Assembly (NCBI RefSeq): GCF_024832785.1
Contig: NZ_CP116615.1
Span: 2,728,001-2,792,000, forward strand
Length of the DNA: 64,000 bases
Source: Fontisphaera persica
GTDB lineage: Bacteria > Verrucomicrobiota > Verrucomicrobiia > Limisphaerales > Fontisphaeraceae
Reading direction: 5' to 3'
Part shown: one piece after another, positions 51,739-57,658 of the stretch
How positions within the stretch are numbered: position 1 is the stretch's first letter
Layout: every line of letters starts with the position of its first letter
Made by a program: the position numbers and the translations under genes
The notes under the pieces: generated by a model
What the model was told of the DNA's origin: nothing
The model's database searches: none
The model's input: the letters and a program-made list of their open reading frames with translations, nothing else

Positions 51739-52848
51739 TTAAATGGCGTTGGCCACCAAATCGCCCACTTCGGTGGTGCTGTAACCCATGCGGCCGGCTG
51801 CCAGGCTCTTGAGTTTTTCGCGCACCACTTTGATGACCGCCGCCTCGATGGCTGCCGCGGCTTTGGTCTCGCCCAGGAAATCCAGCATCATCTGGCCGGC
51901 GCAAATGGCCGCCAGGGGGTTGATGACGTTCATGCCGGTGTATTTGGGCGCGCTGCCGCCAATCGGCTCAAACATGCTGGTGCCCTGTGGATTGATGTTA
52001 CCGCCGGCGGCGATGCCCATGCCGCCCTGAATCATGGCGCCCAGGTCGGTGATGATGTCACCAAACATGTTGTCGGTGACAATCACATCAAACCACTCCG
52101 GGTTCTTCACAAACCACATGGTGGTGGCGTCCACATGCGTGTAATCGCGCTTGACCTTCGGGTAGTCCTTGCCCAGCTCAATGAAGGCCCGTTCCCACAA
52201 ATCAAACGCATAAGTGAGCACGTTGGTCTTGCCGCACAGGGTGAGCTGCGCCGTCTTGCCCTCCTTCACCTCCTCGGGCTTGAGGCCGCGCCACGGCTGG
52301 CCGCCCCGGCGTTTCATGGCCAGCTCATAAGCGAACCGCAGGCAGCGCTCCACGCCCCGGCGGGTGTTGATGCTCTCCTGCACCGCAATTTCGTTGGGCG
52401 TGCCCTTGAACACAAACCCGCCCGCGCCGGTGTACAACCCCTCGTTGTTCTCGCGCACCACCACAAAATCAATGTCCTCCGGCTTCTTGTCCTTGAGCGG
52501 GCAAAACCGCTCGTCGTAGAGCTTCACCGGGCGCAGGTTGATGTACTGCTCCAGCTCAAACCGTGTGCGCAGCAATATGCCCTTTTCCAAAATTCCCGGC
52601 TTTACGCCCGGGTGGCCAATGGCTCCCAGCAGGATGGCGGGAAACTGGCGCAGCTCGGCCAGGACGCTGTCCGGCAGGACTTCGCCGGTCTTGAGGTACC
52701 GCTCGCCGCCGATGTCGTAATACGTGTAATTCAACTTCAAGTTGAACTTGGGCGCGGCGGCATCCAGAACTTTAATGGCCTCACGCACGACTTCCGGGCC
52801 GGTGCCATCACCACCGATGACTGCGATATTATAACTCTTTAGACTCAT
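51739..52848 (-). CDS. leuB: 3-isopropylmalate dehydrogenase (leucine biosynthesis) or close homologue
   Basis: A 369-residue beta-decarboxylating dehydrogenase. It has the start [28 protein letters not shown], the substrate-binding arginines ([27 protein letters not shown]), Lys/Asp catalytic segments ([28 protein letters not shown]) and [18 protein letters not shown]. It oxidises and decarboxylates 3-isopropylmalate with NAD+ in the cytoplasm. The substrate loop region is slightly unlike enteric LeuB, so tartrate/isocitrate/homoisocitrate specificity is a minor alternative. leuA, leuC and leuD are not adjacent. A strong terminator follows. Confidence 0.88.
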
Positions 52849-52980: not shown

Positions 52981-53817
52981 TCAACCTTTCTCGATGCAGG
53001 CGTAGGCGTTGTGGTTATGGATGCTTTCGTAGTTTTCCGCCTCCACCTTGTACCAGGTGATTTCCTTGCGCGCGTTCAAGCGCACCACCACATTGCGCAC
53101 GAGGTCCTCCACAAAGACGGGGTTTTCGTAGGCCCGCTCCGTCACCGCCTTTTCATCCTGCCGCTTGAGCAGGGCGAATAATTCGGAGCTGGCCGATTGT
53201 TCGACCATCTCGATGACATCCTCAATCCAGACGGTGGCGGTGGAGCGCAACGCCACGGTGACCAGTCCGCGCTGGTTGTGGGCGCCATACTGGCTGATGG
53301 CCTTGGAGCAGGGGCACAAGGTGGTCACCGGCACTTTGACCGTCAGCACAAAATCAATGTCCTTCCCGCAGGCGGCCGCATCAAACCGCGCCGTGTAATC
53401 CATGACGCCCGGCAGGCCGGAAACGGGGGCGCGCTTGACCATGAAATACGGAAACTCCATTTCCAGATGGGCCGTTTCGGCATGCAGGCGCTTTTGCATC
53501 GCGTAAAGAATGTCCGGGATGTTCTCCACATGCACCACGCTGCCATGGGCGTTGAGCACTTCAATGAAACGGCTCATGTGGGTGCCCTTGAATTCCTTGG
53601 GCAGGTCCACAAACATGCCAATGGTGGCGATGGTGTTTTGCAGGGTCCGGGCCTTGTCCAGCACCTGCACGGGAAAGCGCAGACCGCGCACGCCCACCTT
53701 GTCAATTCGCAACTGCCGGTGGTCGCGCTCGCTCTGCTTGTCGTGCATGGGCTGCCGGGCTTTCATCTCGAATCCCGCTCCCGCGGGCGCCGCCAAACTG
53801 TCCATCAACTGAATCAT
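52981..53817 (-). CDS. folE2: GTP cyclohydrolase FolE2 (type IB)
   Basis: A 278-residue enzyme making 7,8-dihydroneopterin triphosphate for folate or queuosine synthesis. FolE2 signatures are RQLRIDKVGVRGLRFPVQVLDK, the metal Cys in TTLCPCSKAISQYGAHNQRG, and YENPVFVEDLVRNVVVRL with EAENYESIHNHNAYA at the end. Family homology begins near MHDKQSERDHRQ, so ATG 53766 or 53748 may be the real start rather than ATG 53817. FolE2 tolerates low zinc because it can use other metals. No canonical folE is seen in the window. Confidence 0.94.
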   Translation of the reverse strand: MIQLMDSLAAPAGAGFEMKARQPMHDKQSERDHRQLRIDKVGVRGLRFPVQVLDKARTLQNTIATIGMFVDLPKEFKGTHMSRFIEVLNAHGSVVHVENIPDILYAMQKRLHAETAHLEMEFPYFMVKRAPVSGLPGVMDYTARFDAAACGKDIDFVLTVKVPVTTLCPCSKAISQYGAHNQRGLVTVALRSTATVWIEDVIEMVEQSASSELFALLKRQDEKAVTERAYENPVFVEDLVRNVVVRLNARKEITWYKVEAENYESIHNHNAYACIEKG

Positions 53818-53919: not shown

Positions 53920-54324
53920 CTAGTTGTGCACCAGCGAAGCCCGCACCACCCGCTCCCGAATCAACGCCACAAAGACCCTGGCCCCGGTGTAAAACCAGCC
54001 CAAATGGCTCCGGCATCGGCCGCAGAGGCAGTAGGACCAGGCGCAGCCGGGAAACCAGGTGTGCTCGAGAGTGGGCACGCCCACGTTCAGACAGCCGCTG
54101 ACCTGGCCAAACAAGAGAATGCAAAACCTGATGCCCGCAGGGTTGACAAAGGTGTGTTCCGCCGCGCCATGCACCTGAATCCGTTCCCGCTCACTGGCCA
54201 CCGGTTGATGACAGGCCACACACAGCCATTGCTCCTGGCCCTCCCCGGACTGGAAGGATGTCTGGGGGTCCACCCGTGGGATGAGTACCTCTGCCGTGCC
54301 CAGGATGTTCTCGTTTTCGGACAT
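53920..54324 (-). CDS. Stand-alone CULT (cereblon thalidomide-binding) domain protein
   Basis: A 134-residue single-domain protein. Cys35-x-x-Cys38 (CVACH) and Cys101-x-x-Cys104 (CGRC) match the zinc site of cereblon. His88, Trp90, Trp96 and Trp110 (EHTWFPGCAW ... HLGWFY) reproduce human CRBN His378/Trp380/Trp386/Trp400 with identical spacings (2, 6, 14). These residues form the aromatic cage that binds thalidomide, uridine and C-terminal cyclic imides. NPAGIRF and GVPTLEHTWFPG are further CULT hallmarks, as in the Magnetospirillum protein MsCI4. No Lon or E3-adaptor domain is present, and there is no signal peptide. The cellular role of bacterial CULT proteins is unknown. Start MSENEN (54324) chosen over 54360. 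Confidence 0.85.
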   Translation of the reverse strand: MSENENILGTAEVLIPRVDPQTSFQSGEGQEQWLCVACHQPVASERERIQVHGAAEHTFVNPAGIRFCILLFGQVSGCLNVGVPTLEHTWFPGCAWSYCLCGRCRSHLGWFYTGARVFVALIRERVVRASLVHN

Positions 54325-54529
54325 GGCACTGATGTGCGTAGTCGCAAGCTGCTTCCTCAATTTAACCTTCCGCGCCTCTTTTGCAATGGCGGCCTGCGCC
54401 CCGGCACTCGGTGTTTACCGCCCGGGCAGCGCGCCCAAGGGCCATGCCATGGGAGCCGGCGCGAACGCCGGAGGCTGCGGCAAAAGGTCTGCTTGGCAAA
54501 GGCTGCCTGCCCCCTTACCATGCCCGGGC

Positions 54530-55096
54530 ATGACTGCAACGGAAGCTTTGCAAGTTTTTCGGGAAACCGGCGCGCTGCTGGAGGGACATTTTATTTTGCG
54601 CAGTGGCCTGCGGAGCCGCCAATACTTTCAATGCGCGCTGGCCCTGCAACACATGCCCACGGTCGAGCGCTTTGGCGCCGCCCTGGCCGCGAAGGTCCGC
54701 CATCTGGCGCCCGCCACGGTCATCGCCCCTGCCATGGGCGGTCTGGTCATTGGCCAGGAAGTCGCCCGCCAACTGCGCTGCCGTTTCATCTTTGCCGAGA
54801 AAGAGGAGGGCAAGCTGGTATTGCGTCGTGGCTTTACTATCCAGCCGGGCGAACGCCTGCTGGTGGTGGAGGACGTCGTAACCAAGGGCGGGCGGGTGCA
54901 GGAGACGCTGGACATCGTGCGGCAGCACGGGGGGGTGCCGCTGGCGGTGGCTGTGCTGGTGGACCGCTCCAATGGCACGGTGGACTTTGGCCTTCCCTTT
55001 TTCAGTCTCATTCAGATGCACGTGGAGACGTTTGCGCCCGACCAACTGCCGCCGGACCTCGCCGCCATTCCGCCGGTAAAACCGGGCAGCAAATAG
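54530..55096 (+). CDS. pyrE: Orotate phosphoribosyltransferase
   Basis: A 188-residue enzyme joining orotate with PRPP to form OMP in pyrimidine synthesis. It has HFILRSGLRSRQYFQ, the APAMGGLVIGQEVARQL loop, FAEKEEGKLVLRRGF and the PRPP motif LLVVEDVVTKGGRV, which all match PyrE. Start MTATEALQ (54530); an upstream overlapping ATG is in another frame. It is divergent from the CULT gene, with ~205 nt between starts, and is followed 22 nt later by an M20 peptidase gene. Confidence 0.94.
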   Translation: MTATEALQVFRETGALLEGHFILRSGLRSRQYFQCALALQHMPTVERFGAALAAKVRHLAPATVIAPAMGGLVIGQEVARQLRCRFIFAEKEEGKLVLRRGFTIQPGERLLVVEDVVTKGGRVQETLDIVRQHGGVPLAVAVLVDRSNGTVDFGLPFFSLIQMHVETFAPDQLPPDLAAIPPVKPGSK

Positions 55097-55118: not shown

Positions 55119-56261
55119 GTGACGCCCGCCGACCCCATCAAATTACTGCGCGAGCTGGTGGCGCTGCCCAGCGTCAACCCCGCGCTTGTCCCTCCCGGCA
55201 CGGCTGGCACAGGCGAAGGGTTGATGGTTGATTTTTTGACCGCCGTGGCGGCCCAGGGCGGCCTGGAGGTGGAGCGGCAGGAAGTGGCCCCCCACCGTTT
55301 TAATTTGTGGTTGCGCCTGGCGCCTCCCGGGGCGGTGCGCATGCGCATCTGGCTGGCCCCGCATCTTGACACGGTACCGCCCGCGGATGCCGCGCAACTT
55401 CAGCCCGTCGTCCACCAGGGGCGGTTGTACGGGCGGGGAGCCTGTGACACCAAAGGCTCGGTAGCCGCCATGCTGGCCGCGCTTCTCCAACTGGCCCGCC
55501 ATGGCCCGCGGCCCGCAGGCGTGGAAATCACCCTGCTGGCGCTGGTGGATGAGGAGCATCACCAGCTTGGCTCGCGCGCGGTTGCCGCCAGTGGACGCCG
55601 GGCCGATTTGGCGATTGTGGGTGAACCCACCGGCTGCCGCGTGGTTACGGCGCACAAAGGCAACACGTGGATTCAACTCGCCACCCGGGGCCGCGCCGCG
55701 CATGGGTCCACGCCTGAAAAAGGACGCAATGCCGTTGAGGCGATGAGCCGGGTCATTCAAATCCTGAGCACCACGGGCAGGGCCGCGTTGCAACGGCGAA
55801 AACATCCGTTGCTGGGCTGCCCCACCTTGAGTGTGGGACGCATTGAAGGCGGCTCCCAGCCCAACATTGTGCCAGATGCCTGCACGCTGACCTTGGACCG
55901 CCGTTTGCTGCCGGGGGAAAGCACCGCCAGTGCCGTCCGTGAAATCCAGCGCTGGCTGCGCGAGGCGGGGATGCGCGGGGTGACGGTGACGAATCTCAAA
56001 CCCGTTTCCTGCCCCGCCCTGGCCACACCGGCGGATTTGCCGCTGGTTCGGGACCTCATGCGGGCGGCCCGCTGCCCCCGCCCCCTGGGCGCGCCATTCT
56101 TTTGCGATGCCGCGATATTGGCCGGCGCCGGCACCCCTTCGGTGGTCTTTGGCCCCGGTGACGTTGCGCAAGCGCATACCGCCGACGAATACGTGAGCCT
56201 GGCCCAGGTGCAACAAGCCACGGACATCTTGCGCCATTTTCTGGAGCAGCTCGAGGCATGA
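55119..56261 (+). CDS. M20-family amidohydrolase (ArgE/DapE/carboxypeptidase G2-like)
   Basis: A 380-residue zinc peptidase-fold protein starting with GTG at 55119. The metal ligands lie in LAPHLDTVPP (His, Asp), GRGACDTKGS (Asp), LALVDEEHHQLGS (catalytic Glu, Glu) and IVGEPTG. The C-terminal His lies in AQAHTADEYVSL. The dimerisation insert (~180-290) includes GRAAHGSTPEKGRNAVEAM. Members deacylate N-acetylornithine, N-succinyl-DAP or peptides. A role in arginine or lysine synthesis is plausible, but specificity cannot be read. The stop overlaps the flippase start by 4 nt. Confidence 0.88.
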   Translation: MTPADPIKLLRELVALPSVNPALVPPGTAGTGEGLMVDFLTAVAAQGGLEVERQEVAPHRFNLWLRLAPPGAVRMRIWLAPHLDTVPPADAAQLQPVVHQGRLYGRGACDTKGSVAAMLAALLQLARHGPRPAGVEITLLALVDEEHHQLGSRAVAASGRRADLAIVGEPTGCRVVTAHKGNTWIQLATRGRAAHGSTPEKGRNAVEAMSRVIQILSTTGRAALQRRKHPLLGCPTLSVGRIEGGSQPNIVPDACTLTLDRRLLPGESTASAVREIQRWLREAGMRGVTVTNLKPVSCPALATPADLPLVRDLMRAARCPRPLGAPFFCDAAILAGAGTPSVVFGPGDVAQAHTADEYVSLAQVQQATDILRHFLEQLEA

Positions 56262-57658
56262 CCACGGTTCCATCCACCCCCAAAGAAGGGCGCGCGCGCT
56301 TTTTCCGGCAGAGCGGCTGGATGGTCAGTGCCACGCTTCTGGGCGGCGTGTGCATGTTTGCCGTGCACGTCATCTACCCCATCCTCGGCCCGCGGGAGTA
56401 TGGCCTGTTCACCACGTTGCTGGCCATGCTCAACGTGCTGACCATTCCGGCGCTGGGCCTGCAAACCACTTTCGCCCACCAGACCGCGGCAGCCATCACG
56501 CCGGAAGACGAAGCGCGGCTGGCGGGCACGGTGCGGGCGGTGCTGGGATGGGCCTTGGTGGCATGGCTGGTTTTTGTGGGGGTGGTGCTGGCTTTTCAAG
56601 GGTGGATTCAAAGCACCTGGGCCATTCATCAACCGCTGGCCCTGTGGATTGTCGTGCTGTTCACGCTTTGCCTGCTGTGGCAGCCGGTGCTTTTCGGCGT
56701 ATTGCAAGGCCGCCAGAATTTCTTCTGGCTCGGCTGGGCCTTGATTACCAATGGCGCCGGGCGCCTGGTAACGGCCTTGTCACTCGTCTTTCTGGCAATC
56801 TGGCTCAGCCCGCCCCCCACTGCCACAGCCGCGCTGCTGGGGGCCTTGATTGGCATTGCGGCGTCGGTGGTGCTGGCCGGCTGGCGCACCCGCGAAGTGT
56901 GGGGGCGCAAGGAACACCTGCCGTTTGTCTGGGGCCCCTGGCTGCGCGTGGTCATTCCGCTCACCCTGGGGTTGGGAGCGTTTCAATTTCTGTTCAGCGT
57001 GGATGTGTTGCTGGTGCGGACGTTTTATCTGGAGGATCAAACCGGCAATTACAACGCCGCCGGCACCATCGGGCGCGGCCTGGTCATGTTCACCGCGCCG
57101 CTGGCGGTGGTTATGTTCCCCAAAGTGGTGCGCAGTCACGCCCTGGGCAAACGCAGCCAGGTCATGCTGGTCACGCTGGCTTCGGTGGCGGCCCTGGGCG
57201 TCCTGGCGGCCGCCGGTTGCACGCTGATGGCGTGGGGGATGCGCTACGTGGTGGAGCATCCGGAGTTCCACCCTGCCTGGCTGCCGGCGGGTGTGCTCAA
57301 GGCCCTGCGCGGAAGCGCCGTCAGTGTCCAAGTCCTGTCCAGTTTGATTCCCTGGTTTGTCTGGTGCATGTTGCCGTTGGCGCTGGGCAATGTGCTGCTT
57401 AACAATCTGCTGGCCCGAAAAAAGTATGGCGTGGTCCCGTGGCTCCTGTTGCTCATCACCGCCTACTTCACCACGCTGGCCGCCGGCGCGCCGCCCCCCG
57501 CCACGGACGGCTCCTATCAACATTTCAAATGGGTCATCCAGATTTTGGGCCTGTACAGCCTGTTGTTTCTGGCGGCTTGTGCCTGGTTCACCTTTCGCAC
57601 CCGGAACGGCGCTCAAGAATCTCTTCCCCCCGATCCGCTGGCCGGGGAAGCGATCTAA
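56258..57658 (+). CDS. Polysaccharide flippase-like membrane protein (MATE/Wzx superfamily)
   Basis: A 466-residue protein with about twelve predicted membrane helices. The N-terminus FRQSGWMVSATLLGGVCMFAVHVIYPILGPREYGLFTTLLAMLNV has the Wzx/MurJ-like first helix pair ending in a PxEYG turn. It likely flips lipid-linked oligosaccharides across the inner membrane. Glycosyltransferases elsewhere in the window are consistent with that. It is translationally coupled to the M20 gene. The C-terminal ~25 residues are polar. Confidence 0.82.
   Translation: MTTVPSTPKEGRARFFRQSGWMVSATLLGGVCMFAVHVIYPILGPREYGLFTTLLAMLNVLTIPALGLQTTFAHQTAAAITPEDEARLAGTVRAVLGWALVAWLVFVGVVLAFQGWIQSTWAIHQPLALWIVVLFTLCLLWQPVLFGVLQGRQNFFWLGWALITNGAGRLVTALSLVFLAIWLSPPPTATAALLGALIGIAASVVLAGWRTREVWGRKEHLPFVWGPWLRVVIPLTLGLGAFQFLFSVDVLLVRTFYLEDQTGNYNAAGTIGRGLVMFTAPLAVVMFPKVVRSHALGKRSQVMLVTLASVAALGVLAAAGCTLMAWGMRYVVEHPEFHPAWLPAGVLKALRGSAVSVQVLSSLIPWFVWCMLPLALGNVLLNNLLARKKYGVVPWLLLLITAYFTTLAAGAPPPATDGSYQHFKWVIQILGLYSLLFLAACAWFTFRTRNGAQESLPPDPLAGEAI

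What the first reader, a model, noticed from the sequence alone, without database searches (positions are those of the whole stretch)
53920..54324. Free-standing bacterial cereblon-type CULT domain with an intact drug-binding aromatic cage
Seen directly: CxxC...CxxC zinc pairs (Cys35/38, Cys101/104) and His88-Trp90-Trp96-Trp110 with exactly the spacing of human cereblon His378/Trp380/Trp386/Trp400. Known: CULT domains bind thalidomide-class drugs and C-terminal cyclic imides. A single-domain bacterial example (Magnetospirillum MsCI4) is used structurally, but its natural function is unknown. Inference: this organism has a sensor or binder for cyclic imides, uridine-like ligands or damaged protein C-termini, free of Lon or E3 modules.
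Basis: partly seen in the sequence, partly recalled or inferred. Interest (0 to 1): 0.8.

Follow-up and report, generated by a model that had tools for sequence, protein, structure and literature searches.

The report
Bacterial cereblon-type CULT domain protein
This bacterium carries a small free-standing copy of the protein domain through which thalidomide acts in humans; the family was already known in bacteria, but some relatives of this gene sit beside genes of a protein-destroying machine, which suggests a testable job for it in clearing damaged proteins.

Summary
Confirmed: window 53920-54324 (-) is a 134-aa single-domain CULT protein with both CxxC pairs and the His88/Trp90/Trp96/Trp110 (+Tyr112) cage. 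phmmer hits the bacterial homologue MsCI4 at 6e-18 and cereblon at 1e-11 to 2e-8. An AlphaFold2 model from 69 sequences (pLDDT 87) superposes on thalidomide-bound MsCI4 at 0.9 A over 103 residues. dN/dS is about 0.2. Free-standing bacterial CULT proteins are known (PMC4287342), so this is a new member; the groups listed in 2015 did not include Verrucomicrobiota. It is patchy: 10 of 320 genomes of the order.

The most interesting result lies outside the window. Among the 80 CULT loci, clpA lies within 6 kb in 4 and clpS in 3, in two arrangements and at least two lineages; 32 conserved control genes averaged 0.125 loci each, the highest being 3 near-kin loci. This fits a bacterial counterpart of cereblon's reading of C-terminal cyclic-imide damage, delivering proteins to Clp. 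For the window organism this is inference: its neighbours are folE2 and pyrE, and its clpS and Clp unfoldase genes lie elsewhere. Ligand binding is untested.

The parts
53920..54324 (-). CULT protein, 134 aa, single domain (residues about 31-131) with a low-confidence N-terminus (1-30)
54325..54529 (.). 205-bp divergent intergenic region between the CULT gene and pyrE; presumably holds both promoters (not tested)
   Evidence: coordinates
52981..53817 (-). folE2 (GTP cyclohydrolase FolE2), next gene downstream, same strand, about 100 bp gap; CULT-folE2 is also the order in the sister species G001
   Evidence: Pfam GCHY-1 4.3e-94, NCBIfam FolE2, order in G001; folE2 found near CULT only there among 88 other loci; exact start is from my own simple gene caller
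51739..52848 (-). 3-isopropylmalate dehydrogenase-like gene, downstream of folE2
   Evidence: NCBIfam NF002898 3e-151
54530..55096 (+). pyrE (orotate phosphoribosyltransferase), divergent upstream neighbour; not found near CULT in 88 other loci
   Evidence: NCBIfam TIGR01367 2.1e-56

Best explanation
Shown: a conserved single-domain CULT protein without an apparent signal peptide (by eye), with the zinc-site cysteines and a complete aromatic cage. Inferred from the family: the cage binds a cyclic imide. Inferred mechanism: the protein recognises C-terminal cyclic imides (aspartimide or glutarimide ends left by Asn/Gln cyclisation and chain breakage) on damaged proteins and brings them to a Clp protease, a C-terminal counterpart of the N-degron adaptor ClpS. 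The step 'brings to Clp' rests on clpS-clpA lying beside CULT genes in other lineages, not in this genome. I put family identity at about 0.97, cyclic-imide binding at about 0.75 and the Clp-adaptor step at about 0.3.
For: Fold and cage. One entry the model superposes on is CRBN-DDB1 with GLUL-cN, by its title a cyclic-imide complex (9nr3, Z 17.8, rmsd 1.6 over 103 residues). Human cereblon reads C-terminal cyclic imides through this domain (PMC11974815 passages; PMC13001092 passages). Clp link: in the 80 loci, clpA lies within 6 kb of CULT in 4 (L017, L025, L037, L054) and clpS in 3 (L025, L037, L054). Control: 32 conserved E. coli genes searched the same way averaged 0.125 loci; 30 had none, purM had 1, der had 3 (L060, L070, L073, three near-kin Rhodospirillales loci); clpP, clpX, lon, hslU, hslV, ftsH, aat and pcm had none. 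Follow-up in the class of L025's genome: 3 of the 4 CULT-positive genomes, L025's own included. In L037 and L054 the order is CULT-clpS-clpA on one strand with 88 and 21 bp between CULT and clpS. The window organism has clpS and two open frames of 841 and 868 aa with two Clp_N repeats each.
Against: 76 of the 80 loci show no clpA in the sequence held (many are cut by contig ends), nor do 8 of 8 further Verrucomicrobiota regions. The tree is poorly resolved and does not exclude one origin of the linkage. In the second arrangement the genes face each other, so they share no transcript. Other genes recur beside CULT too (proA, named by recall, in 6 of 90 loci). clpS presence does not track CULT in the relatives: 5 of 5 CULT-positive against 35 of 53 CULT-negative, p 0.14. 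The protein's own ligand binding is untested, and uridine also binds MsCI4.
Confidence: 0.35

Rival explanations
1. Pyrimidine sensor: the cage reads uridine or uracil and the protein adjusts pyrimidine or RNA-modification metabolism.
For: MsCI4 binds uridine with affinity in the low micromolar range (PMC4449219 passages); the window gene is divergent from pyrE; in two genomes of family f88 CULT directly follows thiI, the tRNA 4-thiouridine gene by recalled name (L107, L108).
Against: The window's pyrE has no match near CULT in the 80 loci or in 8 further Verrucomicrobiota regions, and thiI only in L107 and L108; [quoted passage not shown] Only one domain is present.
Confidence: 0.15
2. Binder of damaged or imide-bearing proteins that protects or sequesters them, or hands them to repair rather than to a protease; possibly linked to protein-isoaspartyl methyltransferase (PIMT), which in humans makes the degron.
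For: PCMT1 makes C-terminal cyclic imides in humans (cited in PMC13001092, and PMC11974815). PIMT above 190 bits in 5 of 5 CULT-positive and 18 of 53 CULT-negative relatives, p 0.007; in the order 8 of 10 against 78 of 310, p 0.0006. In G183 the order is pcm-thiI-CULT on one strand.
Against: By genus the order test is 5 of 6 against 47 of 112, p 0.058; cut-offs were chosen after seeing scores. In 7 of 8 PIMTs of CULT-positive genomes of the order the N-terminus looks like a lipoprotein signal (by eye), so the enzyme would be outside the cytosol where CULT appears to be. pcm has no match in the 80 loci.
Confidence: 0.2
3. Binder of a small exogenous or metabolic cyclic imide or hydantoin, as an uptake or catabolic sensor.
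For: The cage accepts many small imides and lactams in MsCI4 crystals (titles). An amidase-type gene (by eye) recurs near CULT in two loci of two lineages, L063 and L080.
Against: None of the nine window neighbours scanned is an imide or hydantoin enzyme by Pfam. The other loci's neighbours were not annotated systematically.
Confidence: 0.15
4. A small zinc fold kept for a protein-protein role, with the cage conserved for folding rather than for a ligand.
For: Neighbourhoods are mostly unrelated.
Against: Cage residues are nearly invariant (N61 69/69, W110 68/68, aromatic 112 in 68/68); part of MsCI4 unfolds when thalidomide leaves (PMC4449219 abstract and passages).
Confidence: 0.15

Closest known systems
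MsCI4 (MGR_0879), Magnetospirillum gryphiswaldense single-domain CULT protein
   Same: Single-domain architecture, zinc CxxC pairs, three-Trp cage, NP motif of the inserted hairpin and Tyr at the cage base; rmsd 0.9 A over 103 residues with the thalidomide complex
   Different: 36% identity; His at position 88 as in human instead of Phe77; lacks a 3-residue insert after the last cage strand; Cys at 68, 78, 94 and 99 where MsCI4 has none
Human cereblon thalidomide-binding domain
   Same: Same fold (rmsd 1.1-2.8 over 98-106 residues in the rows) and a cage with the His378-type residue
   Different: No Lon-like domain and no DDB1-binding part in the 134 aa; Tyr112 where human has Phe (Phe402, number recalled)
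Yippee / Mis18 (PF03226)
   Same: Nearest relatives of CULT by PMC4287342 (abstract); weak Pfam match 9.4e-5
   Different: 23.0 bits, below the 26.6 cut-off
ClpS, N-degron adaptor of ClpAP
   Same: Proposed analogous role; neighbours CULT in some genomes
   Different: Different protein family; no evidence of contact with CULT

Membership tests
CULT domain family | Two CxxC pairs placed to bind one zinc | tested here: met
   C35/C38/C101/C104; 69/69 and 68/68 in the alignment; zinc itself not tested
CULT domain family | Three Trp of the thalidomide cage at conserved spacing | tested here: met
   W90, W96, W110
CULT domain family | Closer by sequence to CULT than to other beta-tent families | tested here: met
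   All 46 PDB sequences found are cereblon or MsCI4; Yippee-Mis18 below cut-off
CULT domain family | Beta-tent fold | tested here: met
   Confident model and superposition on MsCI4, Z 19.8
CULT domain family | Binds thalidomide-type imides or uridine | not testable with these tools
   needs purified protein
Cereblon (full-length E3 adaptor) | N-terminal Lon-like domain and DDB1-binding region | tested here: not met
   134-aa ORF holds one domain only
Yippee / Mis18 | Pfam PF03226 above its curated cut-off | tested here: not met
   23.0 against 26.6 bits
MsrB and other beta-tent families | Better match than to CULT | tested here: inconclusive
   not listed by Pfam at 0.01 nor among the 50 rows shown
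Clp protease adaptor (functional class) | Gene next to clpS/clpA in this genome | tested here: not met
   window neighbours are folE2 and pyrE; clpS lies at G000:C1:390104
Clp protease adaptor (functional class) | Physical delivery of substrates to ClpA/ClpC | not testable with these tools
   needs biochemistry

The most novel reading that the evidence does not exclude
Bacterial CULT proteins are C-degron adaptors: they read C-terminal cyclic imides on damaged proteins and deliver them to the ClpS/ClpA(ClpC)-ClpP machine, so the chemistry cereblon reads in eukaryotes is an older bacterial quality-control signal served by a protease instead of by ubiquitin.
Probability: 0.25. Interest if true: 0.88.

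Novelty: new member of a known kind. Interest (0 to 1): 0.52.

Why it matters
I found no stated natural job for free-standing bacterial CULT proteins in the papers seen, although MsCI4 is much used in drug crystallography. The clpS-clpA neighbourhoods give a concrete, cheap experiment. If the reading is right, cyclic-imide degrons would exist outside ubiquitin-dependent systems, and bacterial Clp could perhaps be addressed with imide ligands.

Tried and rejected
Mobile origin: no match in 50,697 phage records, 72,556 plasmid records or IMG/VR (8 pattern hits, none confirmed). Conserved operon across Verrucomicrobiota: none found; folE2 near CULT only in G001, other regions have aldo/keto reductase, ahcY, thiI (named by recall) or other neighbours. 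PIMT as partner: co-occurrence suggestive but weak by genus, and most of these PIMTs look exported. Of 56 handles sent as CULT-positive (50 of the 80 loci plus 6), 50 had a PIMT at 1e-10, but I have no background for those phyla and draw nothing from it; G268 among the six was later dropped, because the A1 profile finds no CULT ORF in its region, and L010 and L113 (G527) are both 5,674-base contigs, so G705 is probably G527 again. G268's 7.6e-4 match still counts in the tally (5 of 387). The single-sequence structure failed (pLDDT 39.8). My first gene caller lost most CULT genes to antisense ORFs and was replaced; its neighbour calls stay approximate. A first control set (9 of 10 background genes without a best match, hupB once) was weak, because ORFs under 80 aa were not listed for the 80 loci, so infA and cspD could be missed, and some genes are poorly conserved; (tblastn, 32 conserved genes) replaces it. 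Absences in fold lists are not used as evidence.

Caution on counts: W90 and W96 were part of the scan pattern, so their invariance is by selection; N61, C35/38, C101/104, W110 and residue 112 were not. A2 uses 67 of the 80 loci plus the window and L002. Of the regions L107-L118 fetched, L113, L114, L115 and L118 appear to repeat L010, L013, L011 and L018; one search uses the other eight. The clpA link in L126 and L127 came from a follow-up in the clade of L025 and is no independent draw. In print: searches of the held open-access library for cereblon with ClpS (6 papers listed; passages of one, PMC8138137, read, treat them separately) and for bacterial CULT or cereblon terms showed no such link; I saw listings, and passages or sections of PMC4287342, PMC4449219, PMC8900816, PMC11974815, PMC13001092, PMC8138137 and PMC12117711 only; most subscription papers are not held.

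Full report
Observation. Pfam gives Yippee-Mis18 at 9.4e-5, below its cut-off, and NCBIfam nothing. It is single copy in a 4.73-Mb genome. The ortholog in the sister species G001 is 70% identical and shares the ATG. dN 0.23 and dS 1.08 in this frame give a ratio of 0.22; the other five frames give 0.45 or more.

Structure. From the sequence alone AlphaFold2 failed. With 69 bacterial CULT sequences (A2) the ten-residue blocks from 31 to 130 have mean pLDDT 96-99, and residues 1-30 have 53-58. Foldseek and VIA-align 2 put MsCI4 complexes first (5amh with thalidomide: Z 19.8, rmsd 0.9 A, 103 residues) and human cereblon complexes next (Z 16.9-18.0). The offset 29->18 puts W90, W96, W110, Y112 and H88 on MsCI4 W79, W85, W99, Y101 and F77. 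PMC8900816 (passages) gives Phe77=His378 and Trp79=Trp380, says the cage residues correspond to Trp380, Trp386 and Trp400, and notes an extra hydrogen bond where the cage base has Tyr, as in MsCI4. The window protein combines the human-like His with the MsCI4-like Tyr: at position 88 His occurs in 22 and Phe in 47 of 69 sequences; at 112 Tyr in 27 and Phe in 41 of 68.

Distribution. 5 of 58 relatives, 10 of 320 genomes of the order in 6 genera and 5 of 387 in a phylum-wide draw (one, G268, doubtful) have a match, the window's own genome included each time. A scan of one genome per species found 94 encoding stretches, 80 kept, by record title mainly deltaproteobacterial groups, alpha- and gammaproteobacteria, with Magnetococcales, Spirochaetes, Verrucomicrobiota, and a few from Acidobacteria, Chloroflexi, Stygiobacter and betaproteobacteria. 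PMC4287342 (abstract and sections 7, 9, 10 read) described the bacterial group as mainly deltaproteobacteria, a few alpha and gamma and one spirochete, consisting entirely of the CULT domain. So the kind is known; Verrucomicrobiota extends it. Ten Verrucomicrobiota sequences including the window form one group (support 99) in a quick tree of 78 rows and 104 columns with many unresolved forks; those of family f88 and G405 lie elsewhere.

Neighbourhood in this lineage. CULT is followed at about 100 bp by folE2 on the same strand in both species of the genus, and in the window then by a 3-isopropylmalate-dehydrogenase-like gene; a same-length gene at the same spacing follows in G001. Upstream is pyrE, divergent, only in the window. 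With the window's pyrE and folE2 and L107's thiI as queries, none has a match in the 80 loci; in eight further Verrucomicrobiota regions pyrE has none, folE2 is found only in G001 and thiI only in L107 and L108. thiI precedes CULT on the same strand in these two (286 and 11 bp). In G183 (L107) a true PIMT gene precedes thiI; in G376 (L108) PIMT is 12 kb away.

Neighbourhood elsewhere. I clustered called genes around CULT in the 80 loci, 9 fetched regions and the window, and listed families found in two or more lineages: 15 clusters, of which those in three or more are a sigma54-activator superfamily, proA, an ABC-ATPase superfamily, clpA and clpS (lineage labels are mine from record titles, gene names partly recalled). 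clpA is within 6 kb in 4 of the 80 loci and clpS in 3 (Pfam ClpS 5.9e-32, 1.3e-32 and 1.2e-33). Control in the same 80 loci (0.79 Mb): of 32 conserved E. coli genes 30 have no match, purM has 1, der has 3 (L060, L070, L073, near-kin), mean 0.125; of the other proteolysis genes clpP, clpX, lon, hslU, hslV, ftsH and aat have none, and pcm none. A rough calculation for a single-copy gene gives 0.25. In L037 (UASB270) and L054 (Chloroflexi-labelled MAG) the order is CULT, clpS, clpA, same strand, 88 and 21 bp after CULT. In L025 and L017 (titled Deltaproteobacteria, Myxococcota by the tree tool) clpA faces CULT. In the class of L025's genome 4 of 9 held genomes have CULT and 3 of these 4 have clpA-clpS facing it, in one with about 12 bp between the stop codons; the fourth contig holds 9.1 kb without them. 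In the phylum of L037's genome only 1 of 4 held genomes, L037's own, has CULT. The two arrangements fall in different parts of the CULT tree (2 changes needed; one origin not excluded).

PIMT. Because human PCMT1 makes the cyclic-imide degron (cited in PMC13001092 and PMC11974815) I tested PIMT co-occurrence. Above 190 bits: 5 of 5 CULT-positive, 18 of 53 CULT-negative relatives (19 if a split gene counts; p 0.007-0.009). In the order at E 1e-40: 8 of 10 against 78 of 310 (p 0.0006), by genus 5 of 6 against 47 of 112 (p 0.058). Of the eight PIMTs of CULT-positive genomes of the order, 7 have lipobox-like N-termini and 1 a signal-like stretch without Cys (by eye), so a direct enzyme-reader pair in the cytosol is unlikely there. 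ClpS is in 5 of 5 and 35 of 53 (p 0.14).

Mechanism. Shown: fold, cage residues, conservation, architecture, distribution, positional link to clpS-clpA in some lineages. Inferred: imide binding; reading of damaged C-termini; delivery to Clp. The window organism has clpS and two open frames with two Clp_N repeats, 841 and 868 aa, so parts exist, but they are not neighbours and no interaction is shown. ClpS delivers through its N-terminal extension (PMC8138137 passages); the low-confidence 30-residue N-terminus here could serve similarly, which is speculation.

Verdict. Its interest beyond that rests on the clpS-clpA association, which makes the function of bacterial CULT proteins testable.

Noticed in passing
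L107:4058-6074 and L108:5871-7492: CULT directly follows thiI (named by recall from sequence) on the same strand in two genera of one Verrucomicrobiota family; 286 and 11 bp gaps. In L107 pcm precedes thiI.
   Followed up: partly
G000:C1:4080141-4080707 (L094) and L131-L137: PIMT genes of CULT-positive genomes of this order have lipobox-like (7 of 8) or signal-like (1 of 8) N-termini by eye, i.e. probably an exported protein-isoaspartyl methyltransferase.
   Followed up: partly
L067, L077, L078, L080 just downstream of CULT: A conserved small protein of 71-76 aa, reminiscent of the SelW/Rdx family by eye, follows CULT on the same strand in four Rhodospirillales loci.
   Followed up: no
L014, L022, L033, L068, L079, L082: proA (named by recall) recurs near CULT, mostly in Desulfohalobiaceae-type genomes and in one Magnetococcales genome; a nadD-like gene is near in L033, L068 and L079.
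   Followed up: no
L057, L061, L062, L066, L072, L074: In Desulfotignum-type loci CULT is preceded by a conserved membrane protein gene (called in five: L057, L061, L062, L072, L074) and followed by an elongation-factor-G-like gene in four (L057, L061, L066, L072).
   Followed up: no
window 56258-57658 (+): Membrane-protein-like ORF with no Pfam match at 0.01 and only a weak NCBIfam hit (spore_V_B 8.7e-5); it starts inside the end of an ArgE/DapE-type M20 hydrolase gene (55119-56261).
   Followed up: no
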